A stretch of 62,517 bases of DNA from Elusimicrobiaceae bacterium (GTDB lineage Bacteria > Elusimicrobiota > Elusimicrobia > Elusimicrobiales > Elusimicrobiaceae), in assembly GCA_017520185.1 (NCBI GenBank), contig JAFXGO010000031.1, positions 1 through 62,517 on the forward strand, in the 5' to 3' direction. Position 1 is the stretch's first letter. The number at the start of each line of letters is the position of its first letter. The notes beneath the pieces are model-generated. The model had not been told where the DNA came from, made no database searches, and saw only the letters and a list, made by a program, of their open reading frames with translations. This document shows positions 38,017 through 62,365 of this stretch, piece after piece. The position numbers and the translations under genes were made by a program.

Positions 38017-38027
38017 AATCGCCCCTT

Positions 38028-39521
38028 TCAATCTTTGCCTTTATCGTTGTTAGTTAACACTTCTTCGGCGGAAGAAAAACCGGCATCTATCCCTTTTTCT
38101 GAGGCATATTGTTTTAAAGAATTAAGCATATCTTGACCGAATTTTTTACCGCCCGATTTTCCGTTCAAATCCGTCGCATTGGTTTTTGTACCCATTTTAT
38201 CGGTTGCCGCGGAAGCCAATTTATCAGATTGTTTGGAAAAATCAAAATAACTGATCACAATCGCCGCCACCATCAATGCACCCATCACAATACCGGCAAT
38301 GGCCCAACCCTGTTCCTCTTTATACTTGTCTATGTATTGCCAACAATCTGCTATGTAAAAACCGATAAGCGCCAACATAGCCGCCCCCAAAACAAAAGCC
38401 ATTACTTTACTGGTAGTATCCCCTTTCATTAAAGAATTAATTGTTAATCCAGCCGCCACTGTACCTGCCATCAAGAAAAACATATTTTTCGCCAAACGGC
38501 TTCTGTGTTCTTTTCTTTCTTCTTCCGTGGTATCCAATTCATCAATGGCTGTATTGAGATTTCTTTCCGTATTATTTAATTTATTTTCAAAATCTTCCGC
38601 CCCTACGGCCCATTCTGACGTATCCAAAGAATCCCCCAACATCTGCATACCCAAAGCGCGTTGGTCCTCACTCATAAATACCTGCGAATGAGAGTTCGCC
38701 TGCTTGCTGCTAGCGGCGGCCACTTTGGCAGACTGCACCGCTATGCCGCGCAAACTGTTTCCTGCGCGACTGTTTGATCCCCCTTGCCAGCGCACCTGTT
38801 TGGCTGAAGAGTCAGCTGACGGATTTTCATTTAAACTTGCCAAACGAGGCAGGTTCGTTTTTCTTTTTTCAAATCCGGTAGAAATAGATTGGGGACCTAG
38901 CATGGCAGAATTGACTTGCTCCGCGCGCGAATTAGGCACATTTCCATAGGGAGCAAAAGAGGAAGAAGATCCCTCCGCATTTACTTTTGGCATGGAAGCG
39001 CGAGGCAAACTGCCTCTGTCCTCACCCAATTTATTAACAACGGTTTGATGAGCCGCAGAAACGGCATCACCCACACCGACCCCATTAACAGAGGAAGCGC
39101 CGTCAGCATCTTTTCCGTTCGGGCCGATTTCCGTCGCACCTTGATTTAACCCAAGGCCGGCCTCTCCGCCGCTAAATACCGTTCCTTCAGTTTGTTCGGC
39201 ATCTATCGTCAAAGAAGAAACTGCCTCTTCCGATTCGTCTAATTGGGCCAACTCGGCCTTCGCGAAGGGATATTGCTCCTCAGCGAAAGCCAAATTTGCC
39301 CCTTGATTATTAATGTGTATAGAAGAATATTCGCTAGGTAAATTTTCACCGGAACGTATAATTTGGCTTAAAGACTTTACCTTTTCAGGCATAGAATCTG
39401 CCGGATCGGTGGCATAATTATAAACGCCCAATGCCGCCCAACCACCAAGCACTACTGCACCCAGCAGGCCGGTCTTACGAATAGCACCTGTTCTATTGCT
39501 CCATATTTTTCGAATATTCAT
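38028..39521 (-). CDS. Membrane-anchored Gly/Ser-rich protein, duplicate copy B
   Basis: The 497-residue product has a basic head and N-terminal membrane helix (about 16-36), a Ser/Gly/Ala-rich exported stretch (40-260) with EGTVFSGGEAGLGLNQGAT, a helical segment (IAVQSAKVAAASSKQ, then QVFMSEDQ), a coiled region, and about three more membrane helices (345-425). It shares these blocks with the gene at 39819, for example YNYA(T/S)D, SLSQII, and FSGGEAGLG. AGGAG precedes the ATG. The function is unknown. Confidence 0.8.
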   Translation of the reverse strand: MNIRKIWSNRTGAIRKTGLLGAVVLGGWAALGVYNYATDPADSMPEKVKSLSQIIRSGENLPSEYSSIHINNQGANLAFAEEQYPFAKAELAQLDESEEAVSSLTIDAEQTEGTVFSGGEAGLGLNQGATEIGPNGKDADGASSVNGVGVGDAVSAAHQTVVNKLGEDRGSLPRASMPKVNAEGSSSSFAPYGNVPNSRAEQVNSAMLGPQSISTGFEKRKTNLPRLASLNENPSADSSAKQVRWQGGSNSRAGNSLRGIAVQSAKVAAASSKQANSHSQVFMSEDQRALGMQMLGDSLDTSEWAVGAEDFENKLNNTERNLNTAIDELDTTEEERKEHRSRLAKNMFFLMAGTVAAGLTINSLMKGDTTSKVMAFVLGAAMLALIGFYIADCWQYIDKYKEEQGWAIAGIVMGALMVAAIVISYFDFSKQSDKLASAATDKMGTKTNATDLNGKSGGKKFGQDMLNSLKQYASEKGIDAGFSSAEEVLTNNDKGKD

Positions 39522-39543
39522 TTATAAACTCCTGCAAGGACTC

Positions 39544-39810
39544 TTAGTTGGAAAGAGATACAGTCCCCACCACTTGTCCTTGATTGTACTCTCTGCGCAG
39601 TTGCGCTTCTTTGCGCCTTTTGTCATACTCTTGCTGACGCGCTCTGCGCTCTTGAGCAACCTGATTGAGAGCCTTGATATAAATCAATTCCCGTTGGGCT
39701 TGGCGATGCTGGGCCGAAAGGTGCAAGTAGCCCACTACCAGCAAGATAATAATCACCCACGCAAAAGCTACAGAAAATATGGTTTTTAGTCTGCTATCTA
39801 CTTTTGACAT
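39544..39810 (-). CDS. Small membrane protein, duplicate copy A
   Basis: The preferred ATG at 39810 (MSKVDSRLKT) follows GAGGT and gives 88 residues. One membrane helix (about 13-32) is followed by AQHRQAQRELIYIKAL and a basic coiled stretch, ending in AQLRREYNQGQVVGTVSLSN. Compared with the copy at 37774, the central part has diverged while both the HRQAQRELIY motif and the tail are nearly identical, so the ends are under constraint. It starts 8 bases after the gene at 39819. Confidence 0.78.
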   Translation of the reverse strand: MSKVDSRLKTIFSVAFAWVIIILLVVGYLHLSAQHRQAQRELIYIKALNQVAQERRARQQEYDKRRKEAQLRREYNQGQVVGTVSLSN

Positions 39811-39818
39811 AGCGCACC

Positions 39819-41306
39819 TCACCCATTTTTCAGTCCGGATTTATCATCATCACCAAACAACATCTTTCCTTCTTCAATGGCATTAGTGATAGACATACCG
39901 GGACCTAGAGTACCTAAAACAGCTCCCGCAAGCAAAGACACGCCCATATTGGTAGATAATGCTCCTGTGGCAATATTATTAAACCATGTTGTCACAGCTT
40001 TACTAACCCATGCAAAAACTACACCAGTCGCAAACACGGCTGCCATTGCTATACCGGCAATTGCCCAGCCTGAGCCCTCTTTGTATTTGTCAATATATAC
40101 AGCACAATCTGCAACAAATAAACCGATAAGACCCGCCAATAACGCAGTGACCGCAATAGCTACCACAAGTCCCCAAGGCTTATTACTTTTCATCGTTGCA
40201 ATAGTCATCATACCCAAAAACGTGGTAAACAATAAACTAACCATCTGCTTTTGCAAACGAGTACGATGGTCTTTACGTTCTTGTTCGGTGGTGTCTATTT
40301 CGTCAATTTTGGCACCTAAATTACCCTCTTTGTTTTTTAGATCTTCTTCAAAATCTTCCGCCGCACCTACGCCGCTATCTCCGGCACCTACATCATCACC
40401 TACCGCATGCGTACCTAAGCCTTGTTGAGAAGAAGCCATAAACACTTGCGCATGGGAGTTTGTTTGTTTATGACGGGCGGCCGCCACTTTGGAAGACTGC
40501 ACCGCAATATTTTTCAAATCACGCCCCATTGGGCTATTGATACCGCCTCTGTAATTTACATTTCTATTCGGAGCGACAAAACCCGAGCCGGTGGCTCCTC
40601 TTAAACTGGCAGGCGCGTGAACTAAGGTCGTACCTTCTAAGCTGGGTATACCGGAAATAGAAGACGGACCCACCGGTGTAGCAGAAGGAGTGCCACTGGG
40701 GCTAACACCTGCATTACCGTACGGAGAAAAAGACGAAGCCCCGCCTGCATTTACAGTAGCAATAGAGGCACGTTTTAAGCCGCCGTTGTTTACACCGGCC
40801 TCGCCTAACTTATTGATAATGGTTTTATTGGCGGCCTCTACGGCATCCCCACCGCTACCGCCATTATTACCGCTACCGCCTGCGCCGGCACCGCTACCGT
40901 TGGGGCCCACTTCCACCGCACCTTGATTAAAACCAAGTCCGGCTTCCCCACCGCTAAAAACAGTGCCTTGCACGTTAATGGGGTCAATACCCTCTAAGGC
41001 TTGTACCTGTGCTTCTCCTCCGTCAAAGCTGGCTAATAAGGCCCCTTCTTGAAGGGCGCGCTCCTCAGCAGAGGCAAACTCCACACCGCGAGCGTCTAAA
41101 TTAATGCCGGAATATTCTCTTGGCAACTCCCCACCGGAAGAAATAATCTGGCTTAAAGAACGAACTTCCGGTTGTAAGGCTGCCGGTCTATCCGACGCGT
41201 AATTATACACGTTTAATGCCACCATACCGCCTGTTAAACTGACTGCAAACAAGCCGGCTTTACTGATAGCACCGATTTTGCTTTTTAAAAGTTCTAAGAC
41301 TTTCAT
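39819..41306 (-). CDS. Membrane-anchored Gly/Ser-rich protein, duplicate copy A
   Basis: The ATG at 41306 (MKVLELLKSK) follows GGAGGG and gives 495 residues. It has an N-terminal membrane helix (about 15-34), a long Gly/Ser/Asn low-complexity segment (polyglycine near 140-155), the IAVQSSKVAAARHKQ helix with QVFMASSQ, a coiled region ending TTEQERKDHRTRLQKQ, and several membrane helices in the last 150 residues. It is a paralog of the gene at 38028. A hydrophobic tail distinguishes it. No known domain was recognised. Confidence 0.8.
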   Translation of the reverse strand: MKVLELLKSKIGAISKAGLFAVSLTGGMVALNVYNYASDRPAALQPEVRSLSQIISSGGELPREYSGINLDARGVEFASAEERALQEGALLASFDGGEAQVQALEGIDPINVQGTVFSGGEAGLGFNQGAVEVGPNGSGAGAGGSGNNGGSGGDAVEAANKTIINKLGEAGVNNGGLKRASIATVNAGGASSFSPYGNAGVSPSGTPSATPVGPSSISGIPSLEGTTLVHAPASLRGATGSGFVAPNRNVNYRGGINSPMGRDLKNIAVQSSKVAAARHKQTNSHAQVFMASSQQGLGTHAVGDDVGAGDSGVGAAEDFEEDLKNKEGNLGAKIDEIDTTEQERKDHRTRLQKQMVSLLFTTFLGMMTIATMKSNKPWGLVVAIAVTALLAGLIGLFVADCAVYIDKYKEGSGWAIAGIAMAAVFATGVVFAWVSKAVTTWFNNIATGALSTNMGVSLLAGAVLGTLGPGMSITNAIEEGKMLFGDDDKSGLKNG

Positions 41307-41370
41307 AAGTCCCTCCGACCTCATTAATTAAAATATTTACAAATACTGACAACAACTCTTTACTGCACAT

Positions 41371-42861
41371 CTACTTCCGAGAATTTTCTCTCAATCTCAA
41401 AGAATCTCTTGCTACCTCACCTGAACGGGTATGCACTACCCCACCGTTTTCAATAGCACCTTCATCTTTTTCTAACTTTCTGCCAAACTCTTTGGCAGAC
41501 GCAGCTGCCCAAGCAATCAATACCGCAACGGGGCCGCCCCCGATTACTCCATACACCCAATTCATAACATGCTTGGCTTTTTTCCAATATTGATCCGTAG
41601 CATAATGGGCACCGCTTTCTCCTTTGGCAGGTTTCACGTTCCAACGGGCCTCAAAGGCTTCAATTTTAGCTTTCATTTTATTGCGTAAATTTCTTGCCAA
41701 TATATAGCCCAAAAAACTCGTAAAAGAGATTCCGGTACAGTCCCGAACAAATTTGTTCAGTTCTTTAACTAAGGCTTTACGCGCATCGGCATAGCTTTCT
41801 GCTTCTTGCTGAAAGTCAGCCGTCTTCGCGCCGATACCGGCTACAAAAGAATCTCCGCCCGTCAAATCTACAGATCCACCGCCACCACCGGTATTTACTT
41901 TTGAGCCAGCGCTTAAAGTAATACCTGCCGGGCCGTATCCTTCACCGGACATAAATATATCACTGGCATCACCGCCTCTGTTGGCAATATCAGCCGATTG
42001 TTTGGTCATGGCGGTCAGGGAGTCCAACTCCATTCCCTGCACTTTGCCACCGCGTCTCCAACGGTCTCCCCCTGCATAGAGCGGGGTATCAATCGGACCG
42101 GAGGCAGGAGATAAAGAGGGCTTAATCGTGGTCCCCTCTACTGTAGGAGATGAGTTCGGGCCGGAATAAGTACTTCCACTTAAACCGTCGGCACCCAAAT
42201 CATGCCCGCCACCCACATTTAAAAGCGGATTTTTACCCCAGTCTCTATTGCGCGCGCCAAAGGACGGTTTTCCGTCTCCATCGCCACCATTGGCTCCGTC
42301 GGCAGGGGCAGGGGTAGCGCCTTCTGCACTTGCAGCAGCGGCTGCGGCGGCCTGTTGTTGGGCTTGAACATTGGCCTGCAAAGCGGCAATTTGCGCCTGA
42401 ATGGCGGCCATATCATTTCCGCCTTTGGTATTGATAGACGGAGTACCCTGTTGGCCCACTGCCACACCTAACCCGGCCGTTTCACCGTCCATTTTATAAG
42501 CCACCAAATCTTGCTCCTGTCTCTCCACATCTAAGAGCACAGGTTTTGCATTTTCTTCGTTCATCATGCGCAAACCGTGTGAAAGCGTGGCCTGAAAACC
42601 GGATTTAACTTCCCCCCCTTCCACAGGCGGTGTGCTGACACCGGCATAACGGCCGGCGGCACTATGACCTGCTACATAAACGATGTCTCCTTCATCATAA
42701 GAAGAAAAAACAGTATCCGGATTGATATCTTGCTGAGAGGTAAGCGCAAAATATCCGCCCACACCTGCCACCGCTATACCGGTAGCAAGGCCTAAAGTCT
42801 GCATACCGGATAAGGCCACCTTACCTGTACGAGTCATCAATATTTTTTTAATGATATTCAT
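41371..42861 (-). CDS. Membrane-anchored Gly/Ala/Gln-rich protein
   Basis: The 496-residue product has a basic head, a membrane helix (about 20-41), a region with a Gln/Ala run (QAQQQAAAAAAAS near 165-180), Gly-rich spans, the helix SLTAMTKQSADIANRGG followed by SDIFMSGEG, and a second hydrophobic stretch near 435-460. AAAGGAG precedes the ATG. Its layout parallels the genes at 39819 and 38028 but the sequences are not alike overall. It may be a distant relative. The function is unknown. Confidence 0.78.
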   Translation of the reverse strand: MNIIKKILMTRTGKVALSGMQTLGLATGIAVAGVGGYFALTSQQDINPDTVFSSYDEGDIVYVAGHSAAGRYAGVSTPPVEGGEVKSGFQATLSHGLRMMNEENAKPVLLDVERQEQDLVAYKMDGETAGLGVAVGQQGTPSINTKGGNDMAAIQAQIAALQANVQAQQQAAAAAAASAEGATPAPADGANGGDGDGKPSFGARNRDWGKNPLLNVGGGHDLGADGLSGSTYSGPNSSPTVEGTTIKPSLSPASGPIDTPLYAGGDRWRRGGKVQGMELDSLTAMTKQSADIANRGGDASDIFMSGEGYGPAGITLSAGSKVNTGGGGGSVDLTGGDSFVAGIGAKTADFQQEAESYADARKALVKELNKFVRDCTGISFTSFLGYILARNLRNKMKAKIEAFEARWNVKPAKGESGAHYATDQYWKKAKHVMNWVYGVIGGGPVAVLIAWAAASAKEFGRKLEKDEGAIENGGVVHTRSGEVARDSLRLRENSRK

Positions 42862-42873
42862 AACCTTGCTCCT

Positions 42874-44475
42874 TTATTGTTTTTTCCACTCGTTATCTTC
42901 TCCCCTTTTCCATATATTCCCGTAAGCATCTTTAAAAATGTTTCCATTATCGCTATAATTACCGTATACCTTTCTTCCTTTCACTTCCAAAGTTGACGTT
43001 GTACTACTATTTGCTCGTTGAGAAATCGATCCAAATCTTGCTCTTCGGCCGGCTGCTTGCGCATTAAACATACCGGCACCACCATATTTATTCTGATCCA
43101 AATCTTTAAATCCTTCTTCTCTGATGATGCGCGCATCTTTTTTTGACACTTTTACCTCCGGTGCATTTTCCGCAGGTTTGCTTAAAGTATATGTACCATC
43201 TTCACCGGCTGCGGAAACATTTAAATGCTTACCATCATCATATACTATTTGTCTCTTAGAGGCATCATAATTGCCACCCGTTCTTTCAGCAAAAGATTCT
43301 ATCCCTCCTTGACCGTACACTTTTTGTGTTTCCCAATTTTTACCCGTTTCTAAAACCGGCACTTCTGGCGCATGCTCTGCCTGCCAATCCTGCCAACCAG
43401 CCTCTTTACCTGCCCGTTCCATTTTTGCATCATTCATAGCATTTTGCGCCGCATTCATGCCCATATTGATCAATCCTTCCGCTAATTTTTTGCAGACATC
43501 AATCACAACTTCTTCCCACCATTCCTTTTCTTCTTCTTCATGTTGTTTTTCGGCGGCTTCAGTATTGGCGTCGCCTACAGCATCATCTAAACCGCTTAAG
43601 TCGGCACTTTCCATCGGGGCATTGGTATCTAATTCTAAGCCTTTTAAATTATCTAAGTTAATTTTACCATCTTCCATAAAAGCATCACTGCCCTGCACAT
43701 TACCGCCCATCATGGCTTTTTTGGCATTGAGTAGTTTGTCATTTTTGAGGTTGGCAGCCGCTCTGCTGGCTTGGGCCGTTTGAAACAGGGCCTTACGAGC
43801 ATCACCTTTACCGGGACCTTTGGGAAGGAATTTATCGCTTCCTTTTTCTTGAGTGCGGAAGTTAGAAAAGTCCCCCTGCGGGCCGAAGGTGCTTTTCATA
43901 CCGGAGCCGCTTGCACTTTTGAGATTGGCAGAACTCAAACTGCCCACCTGCGTAGGGCTGGCCGCACCGCCTGCGCTTCCACCCCCATACCGACCGGGAC
44001 GATACTGCGAAGCAGTGGACGAAGCAGAAGCGTCCAGCTTGGCTTGCTCTGCTTGGGCGGCATCTTCGGCTTGGCGGGCCTCTTTTTCAGATTTGCTATA
44101 CAAACCGGCGTGGCCTTTGTCGTTCAAGTCCGGATATTTAGAGGCCAAAAGGTATTGCTCCGCCTCATCGGTGGAAAAGGGCATATTGGCCAAGTCATAA
44201 CCGCGCGTTTCAAAATTGTTAAAATCTTCCGCTTCCGGCCCACCCACAGAGGCAATGCTGATCAGCGCCACTAAAGATACCACCGCCACCGCGCCCCAAG
44301 TATAGGCTTGTTTGCGGTCCATCTTTTGTAATTTCTTCCATGCTTCACCCAACAGATTATTCTGACGGAGAGCATGGGTTGTAGAAGAGCCCGCAGCAAC
44401 GGCTTTTTTCTTTTCTTCTTGATTTTTTTGGTTGCCTGCTCTTACTTTGGAACCTTTATTAAACAGGTTAAACAT
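42874..44475 (-). CDS. Membrane-anchored low-complexity protein, first of the cluster
   Basis: The ATG at 44475 (MFNLFNKGSK) follows AAGGGG by 8 bases; a GTG at 44484 would add three codons. The 533 residues comprise a long basic head, one membrane helix (about 58-77), a Ser/Gly/Ala-rich segment, a helical part (LFQTAQASRAAANLKN, then SDAFMEDG), an acidic Glu/Trp stretch, and a Tyr/Gly/Asn-rich C-terminus with NGNIFKDAYGNIWKRG. It is the first gene after the promoter at 44590. No family was recognised. Confidence 0.8.
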   Translation of the reverse strand: MFNLFNKGSKVRAGNQKNQEEKKKAVAAGSSTTHALRQNNLLGEAWKKLQKMDRKQAYTWGAVAVVSLVALISIASVGGPEAEDFNNFETRGYDLANMPFSTDEAEQYLLASKYPDLNDKGHAGLYSKSEKEARQAEDAAQAEQAKLDASASSTASQYRPGRYGGGSAGGAASPTQVGSLSSANLKSASGSGMKSTFGPQGDFSNFRTQEKGSDKFLPKGPGKGDARKALFQTAQASRAAANLKNDKLLNAKKAMMGGNVQGSDAFMEDGKINLDNLKGLELDTNAPMESADLSGLDDAVGDANTEAAEKQHEEEEKEWWEEVVIDVCKKLAEGLINMGMNAAQNAMNDAKMERAGKEAGWQDWQAEHAPEVPVLETGKNWETQKVYGQGGIESFAERTGGNYDASKRQIVYDDGKHLNVSAAGEDGTYTLSKPAENAPEVKVSKKDARIIREEGFKDLDQNKYGGAGMFNAQAAGRRARFGSISQRANSSTTSTLEVKGRKVYGNYSDNGNIFKDAYGNIWKRGEDNEWKKQ

Positions 44476-44589
44476 AGGCTTCACCCCTTATTTATATATA
44501 AAAATTCACTCTTGCTGACCCGTAAAAAACAAATTTTTACGCTCAAACACAGAGTTTAAATCTTCCGCGCAATACCAGCGCTTACCATT

Positions 44590-44618
44590 AGTATAAACGG
44601 TTTAAAAGGGTTTGTCAA
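44590..44618 (-). promoter_or_regulatory. Near-consensus promoter of the membrane-protein cluster
   Basis: On the minus strand TTGACA (44613-44618), a 17-base spacer and TATACT (44590-44595) are close to the sigma-70 ideal. The -35 lies within the stem of the preceding terminator. The leader to the ATG at 44475 is about 108 bases and can form a CGTAAAAA/TTTTTTACG hairpin. Confidence 0.75.
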
Positions 44619-44637
44619 GCCTTTTTTACAAACCCCT
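44603..44637 (-). terminator. Terminator of the TadE-like gene, overlapping a promoter
   Basis: On the minus strand AAGGGGTTTGT pairs with ACAAACCCTTTT around a 12-base loop, 16 bases after the stop at 44653. The stem shares its TTGACA with the next promoter. Confidence 0.75.
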
Positions 44638-44652
44638 TCAGCACCGCAAAAA

Positions 44653-45186
44653 CTAACGGTTTTCCGGCCGGACGTACGGCAATACGCGCTCGTTCGGGCC
44701 TACATACTTAATCACTTCAATTTCACCGCCGGTCTCACACAAAAAATCAAACCCTTTTAAACAACTCATATCACCTTTACAAAGTTGCAATTTGTCATAC
44801 TTACATAAAAAGTTAATACGCGGAGGAGCCGTCTTTACCTTAAGCACCACTTTGGTCCACGTACCGGAAACGTCTATCTTTAAATCCATAGAACGTAAAC
44901 TTAAAAAACGCACCATGCCGGGATTGTTAAAACCCAAATAATGCTCCACTTTTTTCTTAATATCTTTTTGCAAGAATCGGCGGTCCCAACGCGTTAAATA
45001 TGCCGCAGTGTGAGATTGCAGCTGATAACGACGGGCAGCATAAAAACCGGCAATTTCCATCTTTTGAGACAAGACCAACAAACCAAAAATTTTAATGATA
45101 AATACAATAAAAATAACCAAGACCGGAAACAGAAGTACCGTCTCGGTAGTTGCTTGACCTTTGCGCGAAGAAAAAATATTTCTCAT
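44653..45186 (-). CDS. TadE-like pilus assembly protein
   Basis: The 177-residue product opens RKGQATTETVLLFPVLVIFIV, a TadE-type prepilin-like start (conserved Glu six residues after Gly) with one membrane helix. The rest is external, with cysteines near the C-terminus (LCKYDKLQLCKGDMSC, FDFLCETG). It is a minor pilin-like part of Tad systems. The start overlaps the TadG-like gene by 4 bases (ATGA). It is the last gene of this subunit and ends at a terminator. Confidence 0.8.
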   Translation of the reverse strand: MRNIFSSRKGQATTETVLLFPVLVIFIVFIIKIFGLLVLSQKMEIAGFYAARRYQLQSHTAAYLTRWDRRFLQKDIKKKVEHYLGFNNPGMVRFLSLRSMDLKIDVSGTWTKVVLKVKTAPPRINFLCKYDKLQLCKGDMSCLKGFDFLCETGGEIEVIKYVGPNERVLPYVRPENR

Positions 45187-46295
45187 AGTCCCACCTTTAC
45201 GCTATATTTGGGCAACGGATTGGGCCAAACACAGTTATTATTACTGCGCGGACAAGAAACCGACACGCTATTTTGCACATACGGAGTATAGCGTTGTGTT
45301 AAATTAATATTAAAGCGGTTTTGCGGTAATGTATATTTTTGTTTTAACACAATACCACGTTTTAAACGGCGCAATTTGTTGCGGCTGGCAGGATTCAAAT
45401 AAGCAAATTGGAAAAGTTTGGCCTTAATAGCCTCTGTCATGTTTAAATCCACAGGATAGGAACCGGAGTGCATGGTAGAGCCTTTATAATCTGCCGTCAC
45501 ATAAAAACGTGTTTTATCAATTTCAAAAGCAGGTGCCTCCAACTCAAACCGGTCCAATGTAGCAGCCGCCTGTTTGCCACAGTCTACTTGGCGGCAATCG
45601 CGCGTGTTTAAATAATAATTCTCACGAAACATACGGGAGTTCTTAATCGTGTCTTTATAAGAGTAGGTTTGAGAATGATAAATAGACCCTGTGCGCACAA
45701 AAATGGTGGCATACTCTTTAATCGTGGTCAGACCGATGCCGGAGGCTCCGAAAAAGTAATTGTCTGCGATAGACTTATTAGTCAACACATAGCGTTCGTC
45801 TTCATCAGGAGAGTCCGCCGGGTCTTCTTTCAACCAGCCAGACCTTTTATCCCCATAATATTTAAAACCCCAGTTGGTAGATTGCGGTGCGGGAGCCGGG
45901 TTGGAAATAGCACCATTGGCCCCTCTTTCATAGTTAGGGCCAATCGTCGGGAAAGCACCGGCCGTATAAAACACGTCAAATACGGTCAGCTTATCTTGTT
46001 CCGTACTTGATTCTTTGGGAGGAACCACAATGTTCATGGTTTTCATAACCCTGTACGGGAGAGGGCCATTTACCTGCGCCAAAGCATTCAAATAACCGCT
46101 GGCACTGGACATCTGTGAATAAGCACCGCTATCTAAGGCAAACTGCTGACGAACTTTAGTCATAGACAACTTAGACATTTCAAACAGCAAGTAGACCACC
46201 AAAATAAAAATAGGCGCAAGCATCACCGCAGGCAACAAAATCTGTGCCCGACGGCTCTGTACGGTCCTTTTTACTTGGTTTATATAGTGGTACAT
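45183..46295 (-). CDS. TadG-like pilus-associated protein
   Basis: The 370-residue product has an N-terminal motif RRAQILLPAVMLAPIFILVVYL and then a membrane helix, in the style of TadG/TadE pseudopilins though with Ala for Gly at the cleavage position. A long external domain follows, with few cysteines. It starts 1 base after the small Flp-like gene and overlaps the TadE-like gene at its 3' end. Homology to TadG is based on position and the N-terminus only. Confidence 0.68.
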   Translation of the reverse strand: MYHYINQVKRTVQSRRAQILLPAVMLAPIFILVVYLLFEMSKLSMTKVRQQFALDSGAYSQMSSASGYLNALAQVNGPLPYRVMKTMNIVVPPKESSTEQDKLTVFDVFYTAGAFPTIGPNYERGANGAISNPAPAPQSTNWGFKYYGDKRSGWLKEDPADSPDEDERYVLTNKSIADNYFFGASGIGLTTIKEYATIFVRTGSIYHSQTYSYKDTIKNSRMFRENYYLNTRDCRQVDCGKQAAATLDRFELEAPAFEIDKTRFYVTADYKGSTMHSGSYPVDLNMTEAIKAKLFQFAYLNPASRNKLRRLKRGIVLKQKYTLPQNRFNINLTQRYTPYVQNSVSVSCPRSNNNCVWPNPLPKYSVKVGL

Positions 46296-54059: not shown

Positions 54060-54944
54060 CTAAAAACCGAGCCCCTGCGAAAGCAGGCCTTTAATCATCG
54101 GCGACAAGATTAAAATAAAAATCGTCGGAAAAATAAACACAAACAAAGGGAATAGCATCTTCGTAGATGCCTGTGCGGCCAATTTCTCGGCACGGCTCAT
54201 GCGGCGGCTACGCAAGTCAGAGGAGAAGTTTCTTAACAATTCCACCAAACTTGTACCTAATTCGTCAGATTGAATAATAAGCCCCACCAAAGAACGCACT
54301 TCCTGCACCCCCGTACGATTGGCAAAACGTTCTAATGCTTCACGTCGAGAATAACCCAACTTAATCTCATTCAGCGTTTTTTCCAATTCTTCTTCTAAAA
54401 TAGTTTTTTTCTTGGCAATACTAATAATTCTTTCAAAGGCGGTTAAATAGTCCAAACCGGATTCAATAATCAAGGCGGCCAAATCTACCGTAGTAGAAAA
54501 GTTGCCCAAGATTTCGGCCTGTCTTTTTTGGATTTTACTTTTAAAAATTAAATCCGGCAAATAAAAACCCAAAGGAATAAATAAAATACCCCAAATGGTC
54601 TGAAACATCAATATAATAGCCGCTGGAAAGACCATTGCAAAAATAATCTTGTAATCCAAAATATCCACCGGCTGAGGTTGATCCGGACTGCCCAACTGCA
54701 TATGCATCTCTTCCAAAGGCTTTTCTAAATGAAAAACATTTAAGCAGAACACCGCCAAGCGGTCCTTCCATTTGTTTTCCGGTTGCAAACGAGAAAAGCT
54801 AGAGGAAGACTTGAAACGCTGCGCGGCCACGTCTACAATTCTGTCTCCGTCCTTTTTAGGAGCAAAAAGATTCAAGACTCCCAAAAATATCGCTCCGGTC
54901 CCGATCAACAAAATGATAAGCAACAAGAAAGATAAACCGTCCAT
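54060..54944 (-). CDS. tadC: Tad secretion inner-membrane protein TadC
   Basis: The 294-residue product has a T2SSF domain: an N-terminal helix (5-25), further hydrophobic segments around 105-145, the FSTTVDLAALIIESGLDYLTAFERI stretch, and a final helix pair (MLFPLFVFIFPTIFILIL). It ends GLLSQGLGF. TadB and TadC form the inner-membrane platform driven by TadA. It starts 2 bases after the TadB stop. Confidence 0.9.
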   Translation of the reverse strand: MDGLSFLLLIILLIGTGAIFLGVLNLFAPKKDGDRIVDVAAQRFKSSSSFSRLQPENKWKDRLAVFCLNVFHLEKPLEEMHMQLGSPDQPQPVDILDYKIIFAMVFPAAIILMFQTIWGILFIPLGFYLPDLIFKSKIQKRQAEILGNFSTTVDLAALIIESGLDYLTAFERIISIAKKKTILEEELEKTLNEIKLGYSRREALERFANRTGVQEVRSLVGLIIQSDELGTSLVELLRNFSSDLRSRRMSRAEKLAAQASTKMLFPLFVFIFPTIFILILSPMIKGLLSQGLGF

Positions 54945-54946
54945 AA

Positions 54947-56569
54947 TTATACCTTAACCTCTCCGAGTTTTTGGATAAGTTTCATACCAATCATAATCCA
55001 GACGAAACAACCGAACAAAACGATTAACCCCACCGGTGTAGTATAGAAAGCAAGCATTTCTTCTGGGCGGAACATAAACATCACACCCAACATAATCACC
55101 GGCATAATACCCACGACCATAGCCTGAATCTTCTGTTGCGCTGTCATAGCGTCCAACTTTTCTTCCAATTTGCTTTCTTCACGAATATTTTCTACCAAGC
55201 GAGAGAAAATAACCGTCAAATTACCACCGACTTGGCGTTGAATAATAATAGCTTTAATGATGTAAGAAAGCATACGGCTTTCCACACGTTCATCTAAGCC
55301 TTCCAATGCCTTTTCAAAGGGAGTACCCAACTGATAGTTTTTCACTACCAAGCCGAATTCATCAGATATCGGCGGTTGCAAGTCATGAGATACCAACTCA
55401 AATCCTTGTACGATATCCATACCGGAACGTAAAGAGTTGGAAAGTAAAATCAACGAATCCATCAACTGAGCATTAATTTTGCGACCACGACTTTTTTTAA
55501 GTTTATCCAATACAATAGCCGGCATCTGAATGCCCAAATAAGCGCCCACTGCCAACACCACAAAAAACATAAATACTCCGCCAAAACCGCCTATAGAAAC
55601 ACCCATTAACAACCCCAAAAAGGCAAAAACAGCCACTGTACCAAAAACAATGTATTTCACGTCAATGGTTAAAAATTGGCGGTTAAAATCTTCTGCCCAA
55701 GCAGTACTCTTTTCTTTGTAGCGGTCCCAACCATCCAATAATTCGTTTTTCTTTTCCGACAGAAAAAGATAAACGGCACCCGCAGCAAGCAAACAACCTA
55801 TCAATATCAAAAGCGTGGCAAAAAGACGATCCCCATCCGTATCCATATAGATTTTGGCATCGGGATGTTCCATCGGAATAGGCTTGGCAAAAAATTCACT
55901 CCACAATTGGTTGGCCAACACCACCACAGCCATTACAGATTGACGGTATTTATCTTCTTTTTGAGAGGCCGGACTGGTAAAAGACTCCACCGTGCTATAA
56001 AATTCACGGTTCATAAATTCCAAAGTGGCTAACATGGCACGGGCACGCCCTTGCAAACTATCTTTCATGTTATAAACCTCTTTACCACGCACTAACTCTT
56101 TGTTTAAACGGTCCAAGTGAGAAACCAAACGGATACGATTGCTCACATAGCCGCGAGACAACTGCTCCAGCACGACCGGCTGACTAGGATCCAATGCATT
56201 ATTGGCACGATCCAAATAAGAAAATATCGTAGCAAAAACACTATACCAAAGTTTGGCTTCGCTCAATGTCCCTTGTGTGGGGATATAAACCACTTTTTGG
56301 GCTTCCATGCGTTCCAACTCCGCTGGAAACCATTTGGGAACAGATATTGATTTTCCGGCCAATCTTTCACCGCAAACGTCCGGATAAACGGCATTTTTTT
56401 GTTCAGCAGGACGATCTACATCAAAAAACCCTGCCAACACCTGCATTTTAAATTCGGCACACTCTATTTTAGCCTTATCATTTGCGTTTAATGCACGCGC
56501 CAAAAGCCCCTGCGGGGCAAGCAGGCTCAAAACAAACAAAGCAATGATTAAAAATACCGTTTTTTTCAT
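54947..56569 (-). CDS. tadB: TadB with an extra exported N-terminal domain
   Basis: The 540-residue protein has a signal peptide (MKKTVFLIIALFVLSLL to LARAL), an extra exported domain of about 220 residues (25-245; two Cys; mostly helical), a membrane helix (250-271), and then a normal TadB: two helices (304-348) and a T2SSF domain (LMDSLILLSNSLRSGMDIVQGFEL) with terminal helices (483-500, 512-532). TadB is usually about 300-330 residues, so the first half is an addition. It would form the platform with TadC. Confidence 0.88.
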   Translation of the reverse strand: MKKTVFLIIALFVLSLLAPQGLLARALNANDKAKIECAEFKMQVLAGFFDVDRPAEQKNAVYPDVCGERLAGKSISVPKWFPAELERMEAQKVVYIPTQGTLSEAKLWYSVFATIFSYLDRANNALDPSQPVVLEQLSRGYVSNRIRLVSHLDRLNKELVRGKEVYNMKDSLQGRARAMLATLEFMNREFYSTVESFTSPASQKEDKYRQSVMAVVVLANQLWSEFFAKPIPMEHPDAKIYMDTDGDRLFATLLILIGCLLAAGAVYLFLSEKKNELLDGWDRYKEKSTAWAEDFNRQFLTIDVKYIVFGTVAVFAFLGLLMGVSIGGFGGVFMFFVVLAVGAYLGIQMPAIVLDKLKKSRGRKINAQLMDSLILLSNSLRSGMDIVQGFELVSHDLQPPISDEFGLVVKNYQLGTPFEKALEGLDERVESRMLSYIIKAIIIQRQVGGNLTVIFSRLVENIREESKLEEKLDAMTAQQKIQAMVVGIMPVIMLGVMFMFRPEEMLAFYTTPVGLIVLFGCFVWIMIGMKLIQKLGEVKV

Positions 56570-56578: not shown

Positions 56579-58858
56579 CTATAATACCGGTGGTGCGGGA
56601 GGTACACTTAAACTGGAAAGAATCGGGTTTCCTTCTTCATCTAGTTTAATAGCACCTTTGGTAAACACTTCTTCCGGCACAGGTACACCTTTTGCTTGGA
56701 AATCGCTATAAAAAGTAGGCAAATTACCCGTAGGAGCAAACAAACCTTGCACTTTTCCGTTTTCATCAACACCGGTTTGCACATAACGGAACAAATCTGT
56801 AGATTGGATCTGCCCATCTTTTTGACCATGCATTTCCGTAATATAGGTCACTTTTCTGGACCCGTCAGAAAAACGGGACAACTGTACAATCATGTTCACA
56901 GCCGAAGAAATCATTTCGCGAATAGCAAAAATCGGCAAATCGGCCCCTGTCTGCATGCACATGGCTTCCAAACGAGATAAACCGTCACGCGGTGTGTTGG
57001 CGTGAATAGTAGTCAAAGACCCTTCGTGACCGGTGTTCATGGCTTGCAACATATCCAAAGCCTCTCCGCCACGACACTCCCCTACTACAATACGGTCCGG
57101 ACGCATACGCAAGCAGTTTTTAACTAAATCTTGAATAGTAATAGCACCCTTTCCTTCCACGTTGGGAGGGCGGCTTTCCAAAGACACCCAGTGCGGTTGT
57201 TGCAAGCGCAACTCTGCCGTATCTTCTACCGTAATAATACGTTCATTATCAGAAATATAACCTGACAACGCATTTAAGAAGGTTGTTTTACCGGTACCGG
57301 TACCACCGCAGACAATAATATTTTTACGAATTCTAACGCATTTCTCCAAGAATTCCATACATTCCGGACTAATGGTGCCGAAACGGAAATAATCGGCCGG
57401 TCCAAACGGTTTTTGAGAGAAACGACGGATGGTCAGTGTCGGACCGGAAACCGCCAACGGAGAAATGATGGCGTTGACACGGGAACCGTCTTTCAAACGC
57501 GCGTCCACCAAAGGCACAGATTCGTCAATACGACGGCCTAACGGGGATACAATACGCTTGATTACTTGTACCACTTGTTCATTGTTTCTAAATTTGTACT
57601 TGGTTAAGGTCAATTTACCTTTTTGTTCGATAAAAATTTTATCAAAGGCATTGACCATGATTTCTGTGACGCTGGGATCTCTCATCAAGTTTTCTAAAGG
57701 TCCCAAACCCAAAATTTCATCTAAAAGTTCCGAAGCGAAGCGAGTTCTCTGTTCGCGAGAGAACTGCAAGTTCGGTTGTTTTTGTAGGATATCATCTACA
57801 ATCGCCGCCACACGTTTGCGTGTTTGAACGCTGGCTGAACTTTCATCACTAATGACAATGCGTTCAATTTCCAGCGTACGCACAACATCTTTGTGAATTT
57901 TTTGTTTTAAATCGTCCCAGAAAGAAAGTTTGGTTTTACCGGCTTCTCCTTCTTCTTCTACCAATACATGGCTTTCTTGCCCCGCACCATCTGCAGAGCC
58001 ACCGGCAAAAATAGGATTCCAAATTTCTTTGGCGGCCTGCGTAAATTCTTCATCACTTACAGAAGCAGACCAATCTTTGGGGGCGGGAGTCAAATCTCTA
58101 ATTTTAGCCAAAACTAACCGCAACCCTTTGATCCATTCCGACTGAGGATTGGAAATAATTTCCACTTCCTTGCGGTTGGAGGTAGCCATAATGCTTTCGT
58201 CCCAAGGCAAAAACACATCAATATCGCGGCCCAAAGAATTATAAAACTTTTCCACTTCTTCGTACGCAATAGATCCGGGCATATCATATTGATTACAAAT
58301 AACACTCACCCGTTCCATCGGATAGCGTTGTTCTTTATAATCATTGAAAAGCTGTACGGTAGAATTTAAATGCGTACGAGTAGCGTTAGATACCCAAAAA
58401 ATCTTATCGGCTATATCAAAAGCAAAAGCCTGCATCGGAAAGCTGGAATCCACATCTAAAAAGATATCAAAAGTCTGAGACAAACGAGACAAAATGGGAA
58501 CTAAAATTTTCGGGCTGATGGAAGCCACTTGAGCGCGCGAATTTCCCAGCGGCAGCACCCCTACTCCCCACTGAGACATAGAAACTTTACCACGCAACAA
58601 CCCCCCCACTACGGCAATATTAGTATTGCCTAAAGTGCGCAAAATATCAGCCACGCTTACAGGTTTTTTGATATCCAAATAGAAACTATGCTCTTGACGT
58701 GCCAACGGATCTAATGGCACTATCAATACGGGACGTTTTTGGATACCGGCCCAACCTAACGCTAAGTTCAACGTAAGCGTTGTTTTACCAGCCCCTTCTT
58801 TCGGGCTGCTAAGCGCAATAATTTTGGCTTCGTTTTTAGGGGTTTCAAGTTCAGCCAT
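56579..58858 (-). CDS. tadA: TadZ-TadA fusion ATPase
   Basis: The 759-residue product joins two normally separate Tad proteins. Residues 1-255 are MinD/TadZ-like, with a Walker A-type [13 protein letters not shown] and a [11 protein letters not shown] strand. A linker (255-330) leads to a TadA/CpaF ATPase with [14 protein letters not shown] (518-531), a Walker B in [16 protein letters not shown], and the His-box [19 protein letters not shown]. TadA powers pilin assembly; TadZ places it at a cell site. The fusion would fix them in a 1:1 ratio. It ends 9 bases before TadB. Confidence 0.92.
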
Positions 58859-58866: not shown

Positions 58867-59601
58867 TTATTCCACCACTTCAACAGTAATAAACAGGAAG
58901 AGAGATCTTTGCTCTTCGGTGACGTCTTTGTATTTAAACAAAAGGCCCAACAAAGGGATACGTCCTAAGAAAGGCACACGGTTTTCACTGACGTTGCGAT
59001 AACTGCTTTTCAATCCGCCGATTACCAATGTTTCACCGCTGTTCAGTTCAACGTGAGTTTCTACATCACGGTTGGTAAAAGAAGGAGCGGTAGCCGTACC
59101 TACAGACACCGTACGAGAATAGTCTACCGTAGAAACGGATAACTGCACCTGTAAGTCAATGATGTTGCCTCTTTCCGGAATGATAGTAGGCAAAACGTTC
59201 AGCAAGATACCATACTCTTCCAACTGAGATCCGACACCTTGATTATTTACCACCGGTATAGGCACTTTACCACCTACGGTGATTTTGGCTGCATTACCAG
59301 AAGCCGTGACAATCTTAGGGTTGGAAAGCACTTGAGCGCGGCCTTCGGTTTCAGACAAACGCAAACGGGTAATCACAGCTGTTTTACGTTGGAATTCGCC
59401 CAAAGACAAAATACCGGGAATATTGGCCTCTTCAAAGTCAAAGATTTGGTTCCACTCAAACCCTTTTGCTGAGGTCATCGTTCCGCCGATTTCCACCACG
59501 TCAGCACTCACAGCCACCAGACGCGTCTTCTTGGCAAATGCCGCCGGGCACGCCAAGGCCATTAACAAAACCAACAAAGTAATTTTAACCGTAGATTTCA
59601 T
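58867..59601 (-). CDS. Short secretin (RcpA/CpaC-like) without N-domains
   Basis: The 244-residue product has a signal peptide (MKSTVKITLLVLLM to AAFAKK), then a secretin C-terminal domain: SLGEFQRKTAVITRLRLSETEGRAQVLSNPKIV, the GGKVPIPVV strand, LNVLPTIIPERGNIIDLQV, and ELNSGETLVIGGLKSS then VPFLGRIPLLGLLFK. The full-length family is 450-650 residues with N0/N1 and BON domains ahead; they are missing. The pore-forming region is complete. It follows CpaB and precedes TadZ-TadA. Confidence 0.88.
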   Translation of the reverse strand: MKSTVKITLLVLLMALACPAAFAKKTRLVAVSADVVEIGGTMTSAKGFEWNQIFDFEEANIPGILSLGEFQRKTAVITRLRLSETEGRAQVLSNPKIVTASGNAAKITVGGKVPIPVVNNQGVGSQLEEYGILLNVLPTIIPERGNIIDLQVQLSVSTVDYSRTVSVGTATAPSFTNRDVETHVELNSGETLVIGGLKSSYRNVSENRVPFLGRIPLLGLLFKYKDVTEEQRSLFLFITVEVVE

Positions 59602-59612: not shown

Positions 59613-60365
59613 TTATTGGAATAATTTTTCAAAAGTAGCAATTTCCATTACATACTGTGCCACGTCACCGTGGGAACGTAAGATAACAGACAAAGTACCC
59701 TCATCTTTAGCCAAAGCCAAATATTGGGCATCTTTGGGAGAAAGTGCCAAGCTTAACGCACTTTGATCGGTATAAGCGGAAGCATCTTCCTCAGCATTAC
59801 GCATAGCAGCCATTGCTTTAGCATCTAAACCTTGTCCCAAGTTAGACCCTACACCTAATACTTTAATGTTTTGTAATAAAGTCACCGTCACTTTTTGACG
59901 GGCACCGCTTTTCATTACCGCTTCAAAAGTAAGCAATACGTCCACGTTGTCATCGGGCTTAATCATACTGGCAACATTGGAGTCTACCGTAATGACAAAA
60001 CCTCTCATCTGTACAGGGATTTTACTAGACAAACCAGCCTCCGGAGAAAGAGAGGTGACGGCATATTTAGAAATTTGGTTTCCTTTCGGAATCTGTACAC
60101 GAGCAATGGCATTGTCAATTTTGGCAAAATCAGCATCCGTAGTGTAAATGAAGGCATCTTTTTGCACATAGGCCGCCGGTATTTGTACACGTTTTAAATA
60201 TTCACGTTTAATCACTTCGCGTTCTTTAATATCACGCACCGGCACTAAAACCGTTTTAATCGTTTTAGAACTATTCAACTTCTTTTGGGCGTTATTAACA
60301 ATAAGCCCATATACTAAGGCTGCAAGCAATGCCAAAACAAATGGCAACAATAATCCTTTTTTCAT
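59613..60365 (-). CDS. cpaB: Tad pilus assembly protein CpaB/RcpC
   Basis: The 250-residue product has one N-terminal helix (4-22), a SAF-type domain (VLVPVRDIKEREVIKREYL, then IPKGNQISKYAVTS), and a RcpC/CpaB beta domain (RGFVITVDSNVASMIKPDDNVDVLLTF). It is thought to lie in the periplasm and link the secretin to the inner-membrane parts. AAGGAGAAAAA precedes the ATG. It is followed 11 bases later by the secretin. Confidence 0.9.
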   Translation of the reverse strand: MKKGLLLPFVLALLAALVYGLIVNNAQKKLNSSKTIKTVLVPVRDIKEREVIKREYLKRVQIPAAYVQKDAFIYTTDADFAKIDNAIARVQIPKGNQISKYAVTSLSPEAGLSSKIPVQMRGFVITVDSNVASMIKPDDNVDVLLTFEAVMKSGARQKVTVTLLQNIKVLGVGSNLGQGLDAKAMAAMRNAEEDASAYTDQSALSLALSPKDAQYLALAKDEGTLSVILRSHGDVAQYVMEIATFEKLFQ

Positions 60366-60421: not shown

Positions 60422-60913
60422 CTACTTTTTAGGGTCAGAGCTGGCATATATTTTTTCGACCGGCATACGTGTGACTGCCTCTACCTTGCGAATGCCGTCC
60501 TTTTTGGGTTCACTGGCTAGCAACCAGCTAGTTCCGGGAAAAGCCAACTCTATCGGATAAACAACCGTCACCACAACATCTTCATGACGGTGAGCCGTAT
60601 ACATCGGGTCTACACCCGTTGATTCTATTTTTACACCTACTGTAATACGGTCTGCATCAGCACCAAACACTTTACGCTTTGCAGCATTAATTTTATTTTT
60701 AGCCGTACTGGAGTTTGCTTTACCGCTAGGCTTATTGGCGGCCACCAAAGCTCCGATACGGGCAAATTCATAGGAAGCGTGATTGGCTATAATCGTGTGA
60801 TAGGCAATATTTCCATATTCCAAGATAAAGAATATCATCAACATCAGCACCGGCAGAATAAGCATCAATTCCACCGTCACTTGCCCTTCACGCTCCCTAC
60901 GAAAAAGTTTCAT
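60422..60913 (-). CDS. tadE: TadE-like minor pilin
   Basis: The 163-residue product opens REREGQVTVELMLILPVLML, the TadE processing site (Gly then Gln, Glu five residues on) and membrane helix; the remaining part is an external beta-rich domain. It is the first minor pilin gene after the two Flp pilins. About 17 bases lie between it and the Flp gene at 60931. Homology to TadE rests on the N-terminal motif and position. Confidence 0.85.
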   Translation of the reverse strand: MKLFRREREGQVTVELMLILPVLMLMIFFILEYGNIAYHTIIANHASYEFARIGALVAANKPSGKANSSTAKNKINAAKRKVFGADADRITVGVKIESTGVDPMYTAHRHEDVVVTVVYPIELAFPGTSWLLASEPKKDGIRKVEAVTRMPVEKIYASSDPKK

Positions 60914-60930: not shown

Positions 60931-61155
60931 TTATTCAGCAGAGCTTACGCCGCCGATGATTTTTTGTTTTACGCTGTCAAACACTTCCGGCATCATGTTT
61001 TTTACCAAGGTACCCACCAAAAGGGCAATACCCACCACTACGCCTAACATGATGATGTATTCAATGGTGTTTTGACCTTCTTTTCTTTTAACACAATTAA
61101 AAGCAGCTTCTTTCACGGCTTCTAATTTGTTTTGCATGGCAATAATAAACTTCAT
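60931..61155 (-). CDS. flp: Flp-type pilin 2
   Basis: The 74-residue product has an N-terminal basic leader of about 27 residues, the Flp cleavage motif EGQNTIEYIIMLGVVVGIALLV (Gly then Gln; Glu, Tyr at positions 5 and 6), and a short C-terminal tail (SSAE). It would be the main or a minor subunit of the Tad pilus after cleavage by a TadV-type peptidase, which is not in this window. AGGAG precedes the ATG. Confidence 0.92.
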   Translation of the reverse strand: MKFIIAMQNKLEAVKEAAFNCVKRKEGQNTIEYIIMLGVVVGIALLVGTLVKNMMPEVFDSVKQKIIGGVSSAE

Positions 61156-61178: not shown

Positions 61179-61373
61179 CTAATTATTTGTTGCGTCATAT
61201 ACTGACAAAATGAGTTTTGCGCCTTGATCAAACTGTTGAGGAACCAAGTTGGAATACAAAGCATAAAAGGCTAAAAACGCACCAAATAAGGCTCCCGCCG
61301 TAATCACATACTCAATGGCGGTCTGTCCTTTACGGTTGCGGCAAATTTGCCCTACTTTGCACACATTCTTCAT
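61179..61373 (-). CDS. flp: Flp-type pilin 1
   Basis: The 64-residue product has a basic leader (MKNVCKVGQICRNRKG) and then QTAIEYVITAGALFGAFLAF, the Flp processing site and helix. It is the first pilin in the operon, after the PorV-like gene, and differs from the pilins at 60931 and 46297 in the tail. Two leader cysteines (Cys5, Cys11) would be lost on cleavage. Confidence 0.92.
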   Translation of the reverse strand: MKNVCKVGQICRNRKGQTAIEYVITAGALFGAFLAFYALYSNLVPQQFDQGAKLILSVYDATNN

Positions 61374-61396: not shown

Positions 61397-62365
61397 CTAA
61401 AACTGTACAGATACGGCAATTTGTTGAGAAGTACCCAACGCTCCAAACGGAGTGACGGCATAATCTAGGCTGGCACCGTAGCCAAACAATTCAGAACTAT
61501 AGATACCAAAACCAAAAGAAATTTTGGAGGTGGAATCCAATCCTAAACTCTTTAAATTGTCACTATCGCTATAACCGGTGCTTTCGCGGTCATACCAACC
61601 TACGCGCAAATCAAAACGGGCCACTTGCAGCAAATCTTCGGGAATATGTACTTCCAACCCGATGCCTAAACGTCCTTCATCATCGCGGTATTTCATATAT
61701 TCGCCGGATACGGTCCAATATTTGGTATTAATATCACCGCCCAAGCGCCAACCGCGCGGCATTTCTTCCTTATCGCCAATATTTACGATAGCACCGCCTA
61801 AACCCAACCATTTCCACGGGCGTGCTTTGGCACCTACGTCAAAGCCTACATTGGTATAGCGATACGTGTCCAATTTTTCATTGATATACTTGGCCGTAGC
61901 ACCAATTTGCAAACCTTGATTAAAAAATCCGCGAGACAAGGACAAACTGCCCACAAAGTTTTGTACCGGTTTGCCGATTTCCGGTTGTTGATAACCGTAT
62001 TCGTCACGATAATCAAAACCGTCCATATCCATGTAGTTAAACGTCACACCGATAATGGTTTTTCCCATAGGCTGCAAATAAGCCAAGGTGCGGGCCTTAT
62101 AGCCTTGCAAGTAATCTAAATAAGAGAACTGAATCTCCCGCGTGGTAGCCGAAGCGGCACCGGCGGGGTTCCAGAACAATGCTTCCGGCCCATCGGCCAA
62201 AGAAACATAGGCATTACCTAATGCTTGGGCACGCGGAGAGCCTGCGTCAATTTTCAAAAACGCACTCGCGCTCGTACCGGCATCGGCATAGCTATCAGCC
62301 AAAACAGCAGGTGCTGCAAAGGCCAAAGTCAAACATGCTAATAAAACTTTATATTTCATATTCAT
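61397..62365 (-). CDS. PorV/UPF0164-type outer-membrane protein
   Basis: The 322-residue product has a signal peptide (MNMKYKVLLACLTLAFA to VLADS) and the PorV/PorQ-family start: SASAFLKIDAGSPRAQALGNAYVSLADGPEALFWNPAGA. The barrel is a 14-stranded FadL-like type, ending in QIAVSVQF. In Bacteroidota PorV takes part in type IX secretion and surface attachment, and in Elusimicrobia it has no known role. AGGT lies before the first ATG. It is the first gene of the Tad operon in view. Confidence 0.85.
   Translation of the reverse strand: MNMKYKVLLACLTLAFAAPAVLADSYADAGTSASAFLKIDAGSPRAQALGNAYVSLADGPEALFWNPAGAASATTREIQFSYLDYLQGYKARTLAYLQPMGKTIIGVTFNYMDMDGFDYRDEYGYQQPEIGKPVQNFVGSLSLSRGFFNQGLQIGATAKYINEKLDTYRYTNVGFDVGAKARPWKWLGLGGAIVNIGDKEEMPRGWRLGGDINTKYWTVSGEYMKYRDDEGRLGIGLEVHIPEDLLQVARFDLRVGWYDRESTGYSDSDNLKSLGLDSTSKISFGFGIYSSELFGYGASLDYAVTPFGALGTSQQIAVSVQF

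What the first reader, a model, noticed from the sequence alone, without database searches (positions are those of the whole stretch)
58867..59601. Secretin reduced to its pore domain
The protein is 244 residues with only the conserved C-terminal secretin core after a signal peptide. N0/N1/BON modules are absent. Periplasmic contacts must be made by other parts, for example CpaB or the TadB extension.
Basis: seen in the sequence. Interest (0 to 1): 0.52.

Follow-up and report, generated by a model that had tools for sequence, protein, structure and literature searches.

The report
Tad pilus pore without periplasmic domains
In this gut bacterium and its relatives, the outer-membrane pore that should let a thin adhesion pilus out of the cell has been stripped to the bare channel, lacking the parts by which known versions dock to the inner-membrane machine, so the machine must be held together in some other way.

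Summary
It is not a frameshift or fragment: CpaB ends 11 nt upstream, selection is strongly purifying (dN/dS 0.02-0.13), and similar short secretins occur across the phylum (Elusimicrobiota). Of 36 aligned, none shows an N-domain in Pfam; all 9 Tad-clade plasmid controls do. No stand-alone N-domain gene was detected in 8 genomes.

The short secretins form one clade, sister to proteobacterial Tad secretins. They track CpaB (63 chosen genomes: 27 both, 5 CpaB only, 0 intact short secretin only, 31 neither), and in five genomes the short one is the only secretin found. So this is most likely the Tad pilus pore. The C-terminal pilotin-binding tail is missing too, and in the window's lineage CpaB lacks the tail that carries the known secretin-docking hairpin.

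Direct contact between the CpaB ring and the pore base is my best guess, untested. The nearest natural precedent is the mitochondrial GspD of some protists. New variant of a known kind.

The parts
58867..59601 (-). Short Tad secretin, 244 aa: signal peptide plus pore domain, no N-domain, no C-terminal S-domain
59533..59601 (-). Signal peptide, residues 1-23 (cleavage site judged by eye)
   Evidence: Sequence; no lipobox by pattern
58870..59523 (-). Pore module, residues 27-244
   Evidence: Pfam 84-244; structural match 26-244 to RcpA 131-371, Z 15.8, rmsd 3.7, 197 aligned
59613..60365 (-). CpaB/RcpC alignment-ring protein, 250 aa, ending 20 residues after the conserved Arg of its last domain
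   Evidence: PF16976 E 4.3e-19, TIGR03177 E 1.9e-33, tails
56579..58858 (-). TadZ-TadA fusion: MinD/ParA-like half plus TadA ATPase, 759 aa
54947..56569 (-). TadB-type platform protein, 540 aa
   Evidence: PF00482 residues 375-498
55850..56497 (-). Extra N-terminal domain of TadB (about residues 25-240), predicted helical; periplasmic by inferred topology
   Evidence: Model pLDDT 88.3; no Pfam match in the window protein
54060..54944 (-). TadC platform protein, 294 aa
   Evidence: PF00482
52665..54047 (-). TPR protein at the TadD (pilotin) position, signal peptide but no lipobox
60422..60913 (-). TadE-like pseudopilin, 163 aa
   Evidence: PF07811 E 6.6e-12
60931..61155 (-). Flp-type pilin candidate, 74 aa
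   Evidence: Weak, below cut-off: PF04021 E 5.7e-4, PF16982 E 0.007
61179..61373 (-). Flp-type pilin candidate, 64 aa
   Evidence: Weak, below cut-off: PF04964 E 0.072; conserved position
61397..62365 (-). PorV/UPF0164-like outer-membrane protein at the head of the gene row
   Evidence: PF03687 E 0.0044, below cut-off; present in 18 of 19 loci of families f1, f2, f5, f7, f8

Best explanation
It is the outer-membrane pore of a Tad (Flp) pilus machine, reduced to the bare secretin channel. Shown: a signal peptide-like start, a complete secretin C-module, no N-domain, no C-terminal S-domain, strong conservation, Tad-secretin ancestry and a Tad gene row. Inferred: after export the roughly 220-residue mature chain oligomerises into the usual double-walled, gated barrel in the outer membrane; the pilus built by TadZ-TadA, TadB and TadC runs through the CpaB ring and then the pore. 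Since the secretin N-domain and, in this lineage, the CpaB C-terminal tail are both gone, the known N-domain/hairpin clasp cannot operate; the CpaB ring most likely abuts the base of the barrel directly or through lineage-specific proteins (TadB extension, TPR protein, PorV-like protein). Assembly without a classical lipoprotein pilotin is inferred from the missing tail and the missing lipobox of the TPR protein.
For: Pfam and structure. 36 of 36 aligned short secretins have no N-domain match; 9 of 9 Tad-clade plasmid secretins have PF13629. Tree: short secretins one clade, 99/97; with the 9 Tad secretins one side of a branch, 100/97; apart from 15 long secretins of the phylum and one GspD. 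Gene order with CpaB, TadZ-TadA and TadB in 19 of 19 loci of five families. Co-occurrence with CpaB in 63 chosen genomes: 27 both, 5 CpaB only, 0 intact short only, 31 neither. Only secretin found in five CpaB-bearing genomes: G081, G065, G068, G158, G061. dN/dS 0.018-0.132 in 10 comparisons, an eleventh saturated. A PulD construct keeping residues 28-42 and 259-660 assembles in liposomes without PulS (PMC4604470, passages), and mitochondrial GspD without N0-N3 and S-domain forms pores (PMC8134430, passages).
Against: No oligomer was modelled and no function tested. [quoted passage not shown] CpaB occurs without an intact short secretin in 5 of 63 genomes: G086 (99% complete), G132 (91%), G186 (79%), G157 (81%), G077 (broken copy). 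Degraded short-type pieces occur without CpaB in G159 and G145. In families f6 and f10 no Tad genes were recognised in the fetched stretches around the short secretin. 10 of 35 CpaB of the phylum, all outside the window's lineage, have tails of 49-69 residues, within the control range of 35-110. Pseudomonas RcpC was not available for alignment, so the absence of its hairpin is judged from length.
Confidence: 0.8

Rival explanations
1. The N-domain is supplied in trans by a diverged, unrecognised gene, as in the split mitochondrial GspD or as CpaI bridges secretin and CpaB in Caulobacter.
For: Split or bridging arrangements exist elsewhere: GspDN1-3 (PMC8134430), RhcC1/RhcC2 (PMC3459982), CpaI (PMC13170226). 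The gene row holds periplasmic candidates: TPR protein and TadB extension.
Against: PF13629 gives only sub-threshold matches, E 0.14 and 0.34, in the own genome; Secretin_N only in the other secretin; the Tad N-domain profile gives 0 matches at E <= 1 in 8 genomes, while the two control records, themselves members of the profile, match. The TadB extension models as helical, not a beta-sandwich.
Confidence: 0.2
2. It is a decayed or truncated gene, a frameshift or an assembly error.
For: Short relative to known bacterial secretins; broken copies exist in some relatives, such as G077 with 2 TGA and 1 TAA.
Against: dN/dS 0.018-0.132; the same length in 34 of 36 same-genus genomes; CpaB gene 11 nt upstream; invariant residues across 36 sequences.
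Confidence: 0.02
3. It is an accessory or dominant-negative secretin, and the Tad pilus leaves through the genome's other, N-domain-bearing secretin.
For: The own genome has a second secretin, a 531-aa frame with Secretin_N; G086 and G132 have CpaB but only long secretins.
Against: In five CpaB-bearing genomes the short one is the only secretin found. The long secretins group with GspD, not with Tad secretins, and three of them (G079, G172, G147) lie beside PilM/PilN/PilO-like genes, judged by eye.
Confidence: 0.06

Closest known systems
RcpA/CpaC secretins of Tad pili (P. aeruginosa, C. crescentus)
   Same: Pore domain, phylogenetic placement beside nine plasmid members, Tad gene row with CpaB, TadZ, TadA, TadB, TadC
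   Different: RcpA has a VirB9-like N-domain (28-112) and an S-domain whose last residues bind TadD (PMC10499894, passages and section 9); CpaC adds an N3 domain (PMC13170226, passages). All are missing here.
Mitochondrial GspD of jakobids, heteroloboseans and malawimonads (miT2SS)
   Same: Natural secretin lacking N0-N3 and the S-domain (PMC8134430, passages)
   Different: [quoted passage not shown] its N-domains persist as separate proteins GspDN1-3
Rhizobial T3SS split secretin RhcC1/RhcC2
   Same: Secretin pore gene of Tad ancestry without the classical N-domain (PMC3459982, passages)
   Different: RhcC2 keeps a BON domain and RhcC1 supplies the N-terminal part as a linker
RcpC/CpaB alignment ring
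   Same: CpaB immediately upstream, PF16976 and TIGR03177
   Different: RcpC's C-terminal hairpin and L3 linker bind or enable binding to the RcpA N-domain (PMC12307814, passages and section 9); in 20 of 20 CpaB of families f1, f2, f5, f7, f8 the chain ends 20-29 residues after the conserved Arg, against 35-110 in 8 controls
Truncated PulD 28-42/259-660 (laboratory construct)
   Same: Shows that a secretin missing most of its N-region can assemble on its own in liposomes (PMC4604470, passages)
   Different: Engineered T2SS protein; whether it keeps N3 was not checked here

Membership tests
Secretin superfamily (PF00263) | Secretin C-domain | tested here: met
   E 4.6e-42, model 3-169 of 169; fold matches, e.g. 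9wfd_A Z 17.1, 8odn_A Z 15.8
Secretin superfamily (PF00263) | Multimeric outer-membrane channel | not testable with these tools
   Monomer prediction only
Tad secretin (RcpA/CpaC) clade | Shares ancestry with Tad secretins | tested here: met
   Branch of 36 short plus 9 Tad secretins 100/97, apart from 15 long secretins and one GspD; unrooted, controls all from plasmids of Pseudomonadota
Tad secretin (RcpA/CpaC) clade | Encoded with CpaB, TadA and TadB | tested here: met
   Window and 19 of 19 loci of families f1, f2, f5, f7, f8; not nearby in the f6 and f10 stretches
RcpA-type architecture | VirB9-like N-domain (PF13629) | tested here: not met
   0 of 36 against 9 of 9 controls. So it is filed as a Tad-clade secretin, not as an RcpA-type protein.
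RcpA-type architecture | C-terminal S-domain that binds a TadD lipoprotein | tested here: not met
   The chain ends at the residue equivalent to RcpA 371; the S-domain is RcpA 381-416
Mitochondrial-type GspD | T2SS GspD ancestry | tested here: not met
   The one GspD in the tree lies on the other side of a 100/97 branch

The most novel reading that the evidence does not exclude
Elusimicrobiota run a Tad machine whose outer-membrane pore is not clasped to the inner-membrane ring in the known way: neither the secretin N-domain nor, in the window's lineage, the CpaB docking tail exists, and no lipoprotein pilotin is evident. The pore is either free-standing or held by a new tether. The bare pore may even be the ancestral Tad secretin, with the VirB9-like N-domain added later in Pseudomonadota; the unrooted tree does not decide between loss and late gain.
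Probability: 0.25. Interest if true: 0.75.

Novelty: new variant of a known kind. Interest (0 to 1): 0.6.

Why it matters
Characterised bacterial secretins connect to their inner-membrane machines through periplasmic N-domains, and for the Tad pilus this contact was described only in 2025 (PMC12307814, passages and section 9). A phylum-wide natural pore without N-domain or pilotin tail shows which secretin parts are dispensable and makes the question of what aligns a Tad pilus with its exit testable. It is also a natural minimal secretin for pore-assembly work and a bacterial parallel to the stripped mitochondrial GspD.

Tried and rejected
Frameshift or longer gene: rejected. Lipidated, self-piloting secretin: the window protein has no lipobox by pattern; 2 of 41 secretin-like ORFs match the loose pattern (L049, L071). 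TadB extension as the general substitute: rejected on distribution. TadB extension as a disguised N-domain: the model is helical; VIA matches reach Z 9.9 at best, mostly designed or unrelated helical bundles, not informative. TPR protein as a piece of an Amuc_1098-type secretin: match E 2.6e-7 on TPR repeats only, and a chaperone TPR family scores better, E 1.2e-8; not pursued.

Species outside the phylum: the one genome-contig scan kept 80 of 225 loci; every title that names a group names Elusimicrobi- or Avelusimicrobium, the others read 'uncultured bacterium'. It says nothing of other phyla. Plasmid searches gave only Pseudomonadota controls among the regions I opened; one opened region carried no annotation and was not used. 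A direct PDB sequence match for CpaB to RcpC was not obtained.

Literature: seven searches listed no paper on an N-domain-less secretin in Elusimicrobiota or in Tad systems; the library is open-access only, and the E. minutum genome paper is not held.

Rows dropped: of 38 fetched regions with a short secretin, 35 entered alignment A1; L059 and L083 (unsure start) and L077 (5.6 kb contig) were left out. L051 was given a trimmed start because its longest frame overlaps CpaB. One duplicate CpaB was removed before the count. The 63 genomes were chosen (23 mostly for having the short secretin, 40 mostly for a weak or missing match), so the Fisher p of 4.8e-13 is neither from a random sample nor corrected for kinship.

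Full report
Observation. The ORF at 58867-59601 lies on the minus strand, 244 codons. Pfam sees only the Secretin domain, which runs to the last residue. Upstream there are nine codons of open frame, then the CpaB gene, whose stop is 11 nt before the ATG; downstream the TadZ-TadA gene starts 8 nt after the stop. The AlphaFold2 monomer (pLDDT 84.7, pTM 0.61) is a beta-rich secretin C-module; residues 26-244 align with RcpA 131-371 at Z 15.8, rmsd 3.7 A, 197 residues; A. caldus 9wfd ranks first at Z 17.1. The RcpA pore was built from residue 131 and its S-domain is 381-416 (PMC10499894, passages). So both ends are missing here and the pore is not.

Conservation. Full-length counterparts occur in 34 of 36 same-genus and 22 of 24 same-order genomes. 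Across the phylum, 167 of 198 genomes have some match at E <= 1e-15; that number includes other secretins. In the rows printed (the list is cut), open frames are 234-364 aa except one of 509, in G043, whose upstream part overlaps CpaB. Ten pairwise comparisons give dN/dS 0.018-0.132; an eleventh was saturated. A 36-sequence alignment has 16 invariant columns, and Pfam finds Secretin in 36 and no secretin N-domain in any. Residues before the first pore strand, signal peptide included, are 20-44 in 32 of 36 and 61-92 in 4. The phylum is inferred from record titles. A contig of 1,643,562 bases (L045) and one of 1,588,979 bases (L063, L175) fit, from memory, Elusimicrobium minutum and Endomicrobium proavitum; both species are reported to have a Tad-like region (PMC8809381, passages).

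Controls. Nine secretins from Pseudomonadota plasmids all carry PF13629; six of them also match BON at E below 0.01, not all above the cut-off. They are 396-641 aa long, and the seven whose sequence I printed have C-terminal tails beyond the pore.

Ancestry. In a tree of 61 pore domains the 36 short secretins form one clade (99/97), the 9 plasmid Tad secretins another (100/99), and the two together are split from 15 long secretins of the phylum plus one GspD (100/97). The root is not inferred, so loss and late gain of the N-domain cannot be told apart.

Which machine? In 19 of 19 loci of families f1, f2, f5, f7 and f8 the short secretin sits with CpaB, TadZ-TadA and TadB; a PorV-like gene is present in 18 of 19. 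In f6 and f10 the Tad genes lie elsewhere in the genome. In two chosen sets, 23 and 40 genomes, CpaB and an intact short secretin occur together in 27, CpaB alone in 5, the short secretin alone in 0, neither in 31. The five exceptions are G086 (99% complete), G132 (91%), G186 (79%), G157 (81%) and G077, whose short secretin carries three stops. Fragments of short type without CpaB were seen in G159 and G145. Five CpaB-bearing genomes have the short one as their only secretin match: G081, G065, G068, G158 and G061. If those genomes make a Tad pilus it has no other known way out.

What is missing around it. In P. aeruginosa RcpC forms a dodecameric ring whose C-terminal hairpin is modelled against the RcpA N-domain; deleting the hairpin abolishes function, and deleting linker L3 as well abolishes binding and oligomerisation (PMC12307814, passages and section 9). 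Of 35 CpaB proteins of the phylum, 25 end 10-29 residues after the conserved Arg of the last domain, among them 20 of 20 from the window's lineage; 10 have tails of 49-69 residues, most of which end, by eye, in a helical QKE..EI..KY-like motif; 8 plasmid controls have 35-110. The RcpC sequence itself was not available, so the domain borders are inferred. The TPR protein in the TadD position has a signal peptide but no lipobox in 21 of 21, and the pilotin-binding tail of the secretin is absent. No Tad N-domain was detected elsewhere: own genome E 0.14 at best, below cut-off; Secretin_N only in the other secretin; 0 of 8 genomes with a dedicated profile, whose two positive controls were members of the profile.

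Candidate substitutes. The TadB extension, about 215 residues and helical (pLDDT 88.3), occurs in 20 of 20 TadB of five families and is lacking in 11 of 11 from other families, so it cannot explain the phylum-wide state. CpaB itself is the only candidate that follows the secretin closely. In Caulobacter CpaI bridges CpaC and CpaB (PMC13170226, passages); no such gene was found here.

Verdict. A genuine, conserved, N-domain-less Tad-clade secretin. Established here: architecture, conservation, ancestry, gene context, co-occurrence. Inferred: oligomerisation, pilus export, direct CpaB contact, pilotin independence. The closest natural precedent is the mitochondrial GspD (PMC8134430, passages); that paper also states that N3 is needed for assembly of bacterial GspD, which makes a pore without it the more notable. 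Seven searches of the held library showed no description of this form.

Noticed in passing
window 56579-58858 (-): TadZ and TadA are fused in one 759-aa protein; hits to it cover both halves in the loci of families f1, f2, f5, f7 and f8.
   Followed up: partly
window 54947-56569 (-): TadB carries an extra helical N-terminal domain of about 215 residues without a Pfam match in the window protein; found in five families only.
   Followed up: partly
window 61397-62365 (-): A PorV/UPF0164-like outer-membrane protein heads the Tad gene row in 18 of 19 loci; in L068 a PorV-like gene sits directly before the short secretin.
   Followed up: no
window 32434-46295 (-): A row of TadE/TadG-like and large, glycine-rich, membrane-anchored or secreted proteins (judged by eye from the translations), perhaps Tad minor pilins or cargo.
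   Followed up: no
L065, L066, L067, L079, N-termini of the short secretins: Four short secretins of families f11 and f13 share a linker of about 35 residues (VVKxITDES...LNExNKKK) between signal peptide and pore: too small for an N-domain, but conserved.
   Followed up: no
L071, L073, L175-L179, L184, L185 (CpaB C-termini): CpaB of other families ends, by eye, in a helical QKE..EI..KY-like motif where proteobacterial CpaB has other tails; a possible alternative docking peptide.
   Followed up: partly
G077:C1:679408-679881: The short secretin is a pseudogene with three stops in a genome of 1.1 Mb in genus g30 of f10, whose CpaB match is also below the family cut-off: the two appear to decay together.
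   Followed up: partly
L061-L063 (family f10): The short secretin lies beside pilin-like and TadE/TadG-like genes (by eye) and the gcvT-like gene, while CpaB and the Tad ATPase lie elsewhere in the genome.
   Followed up: partly
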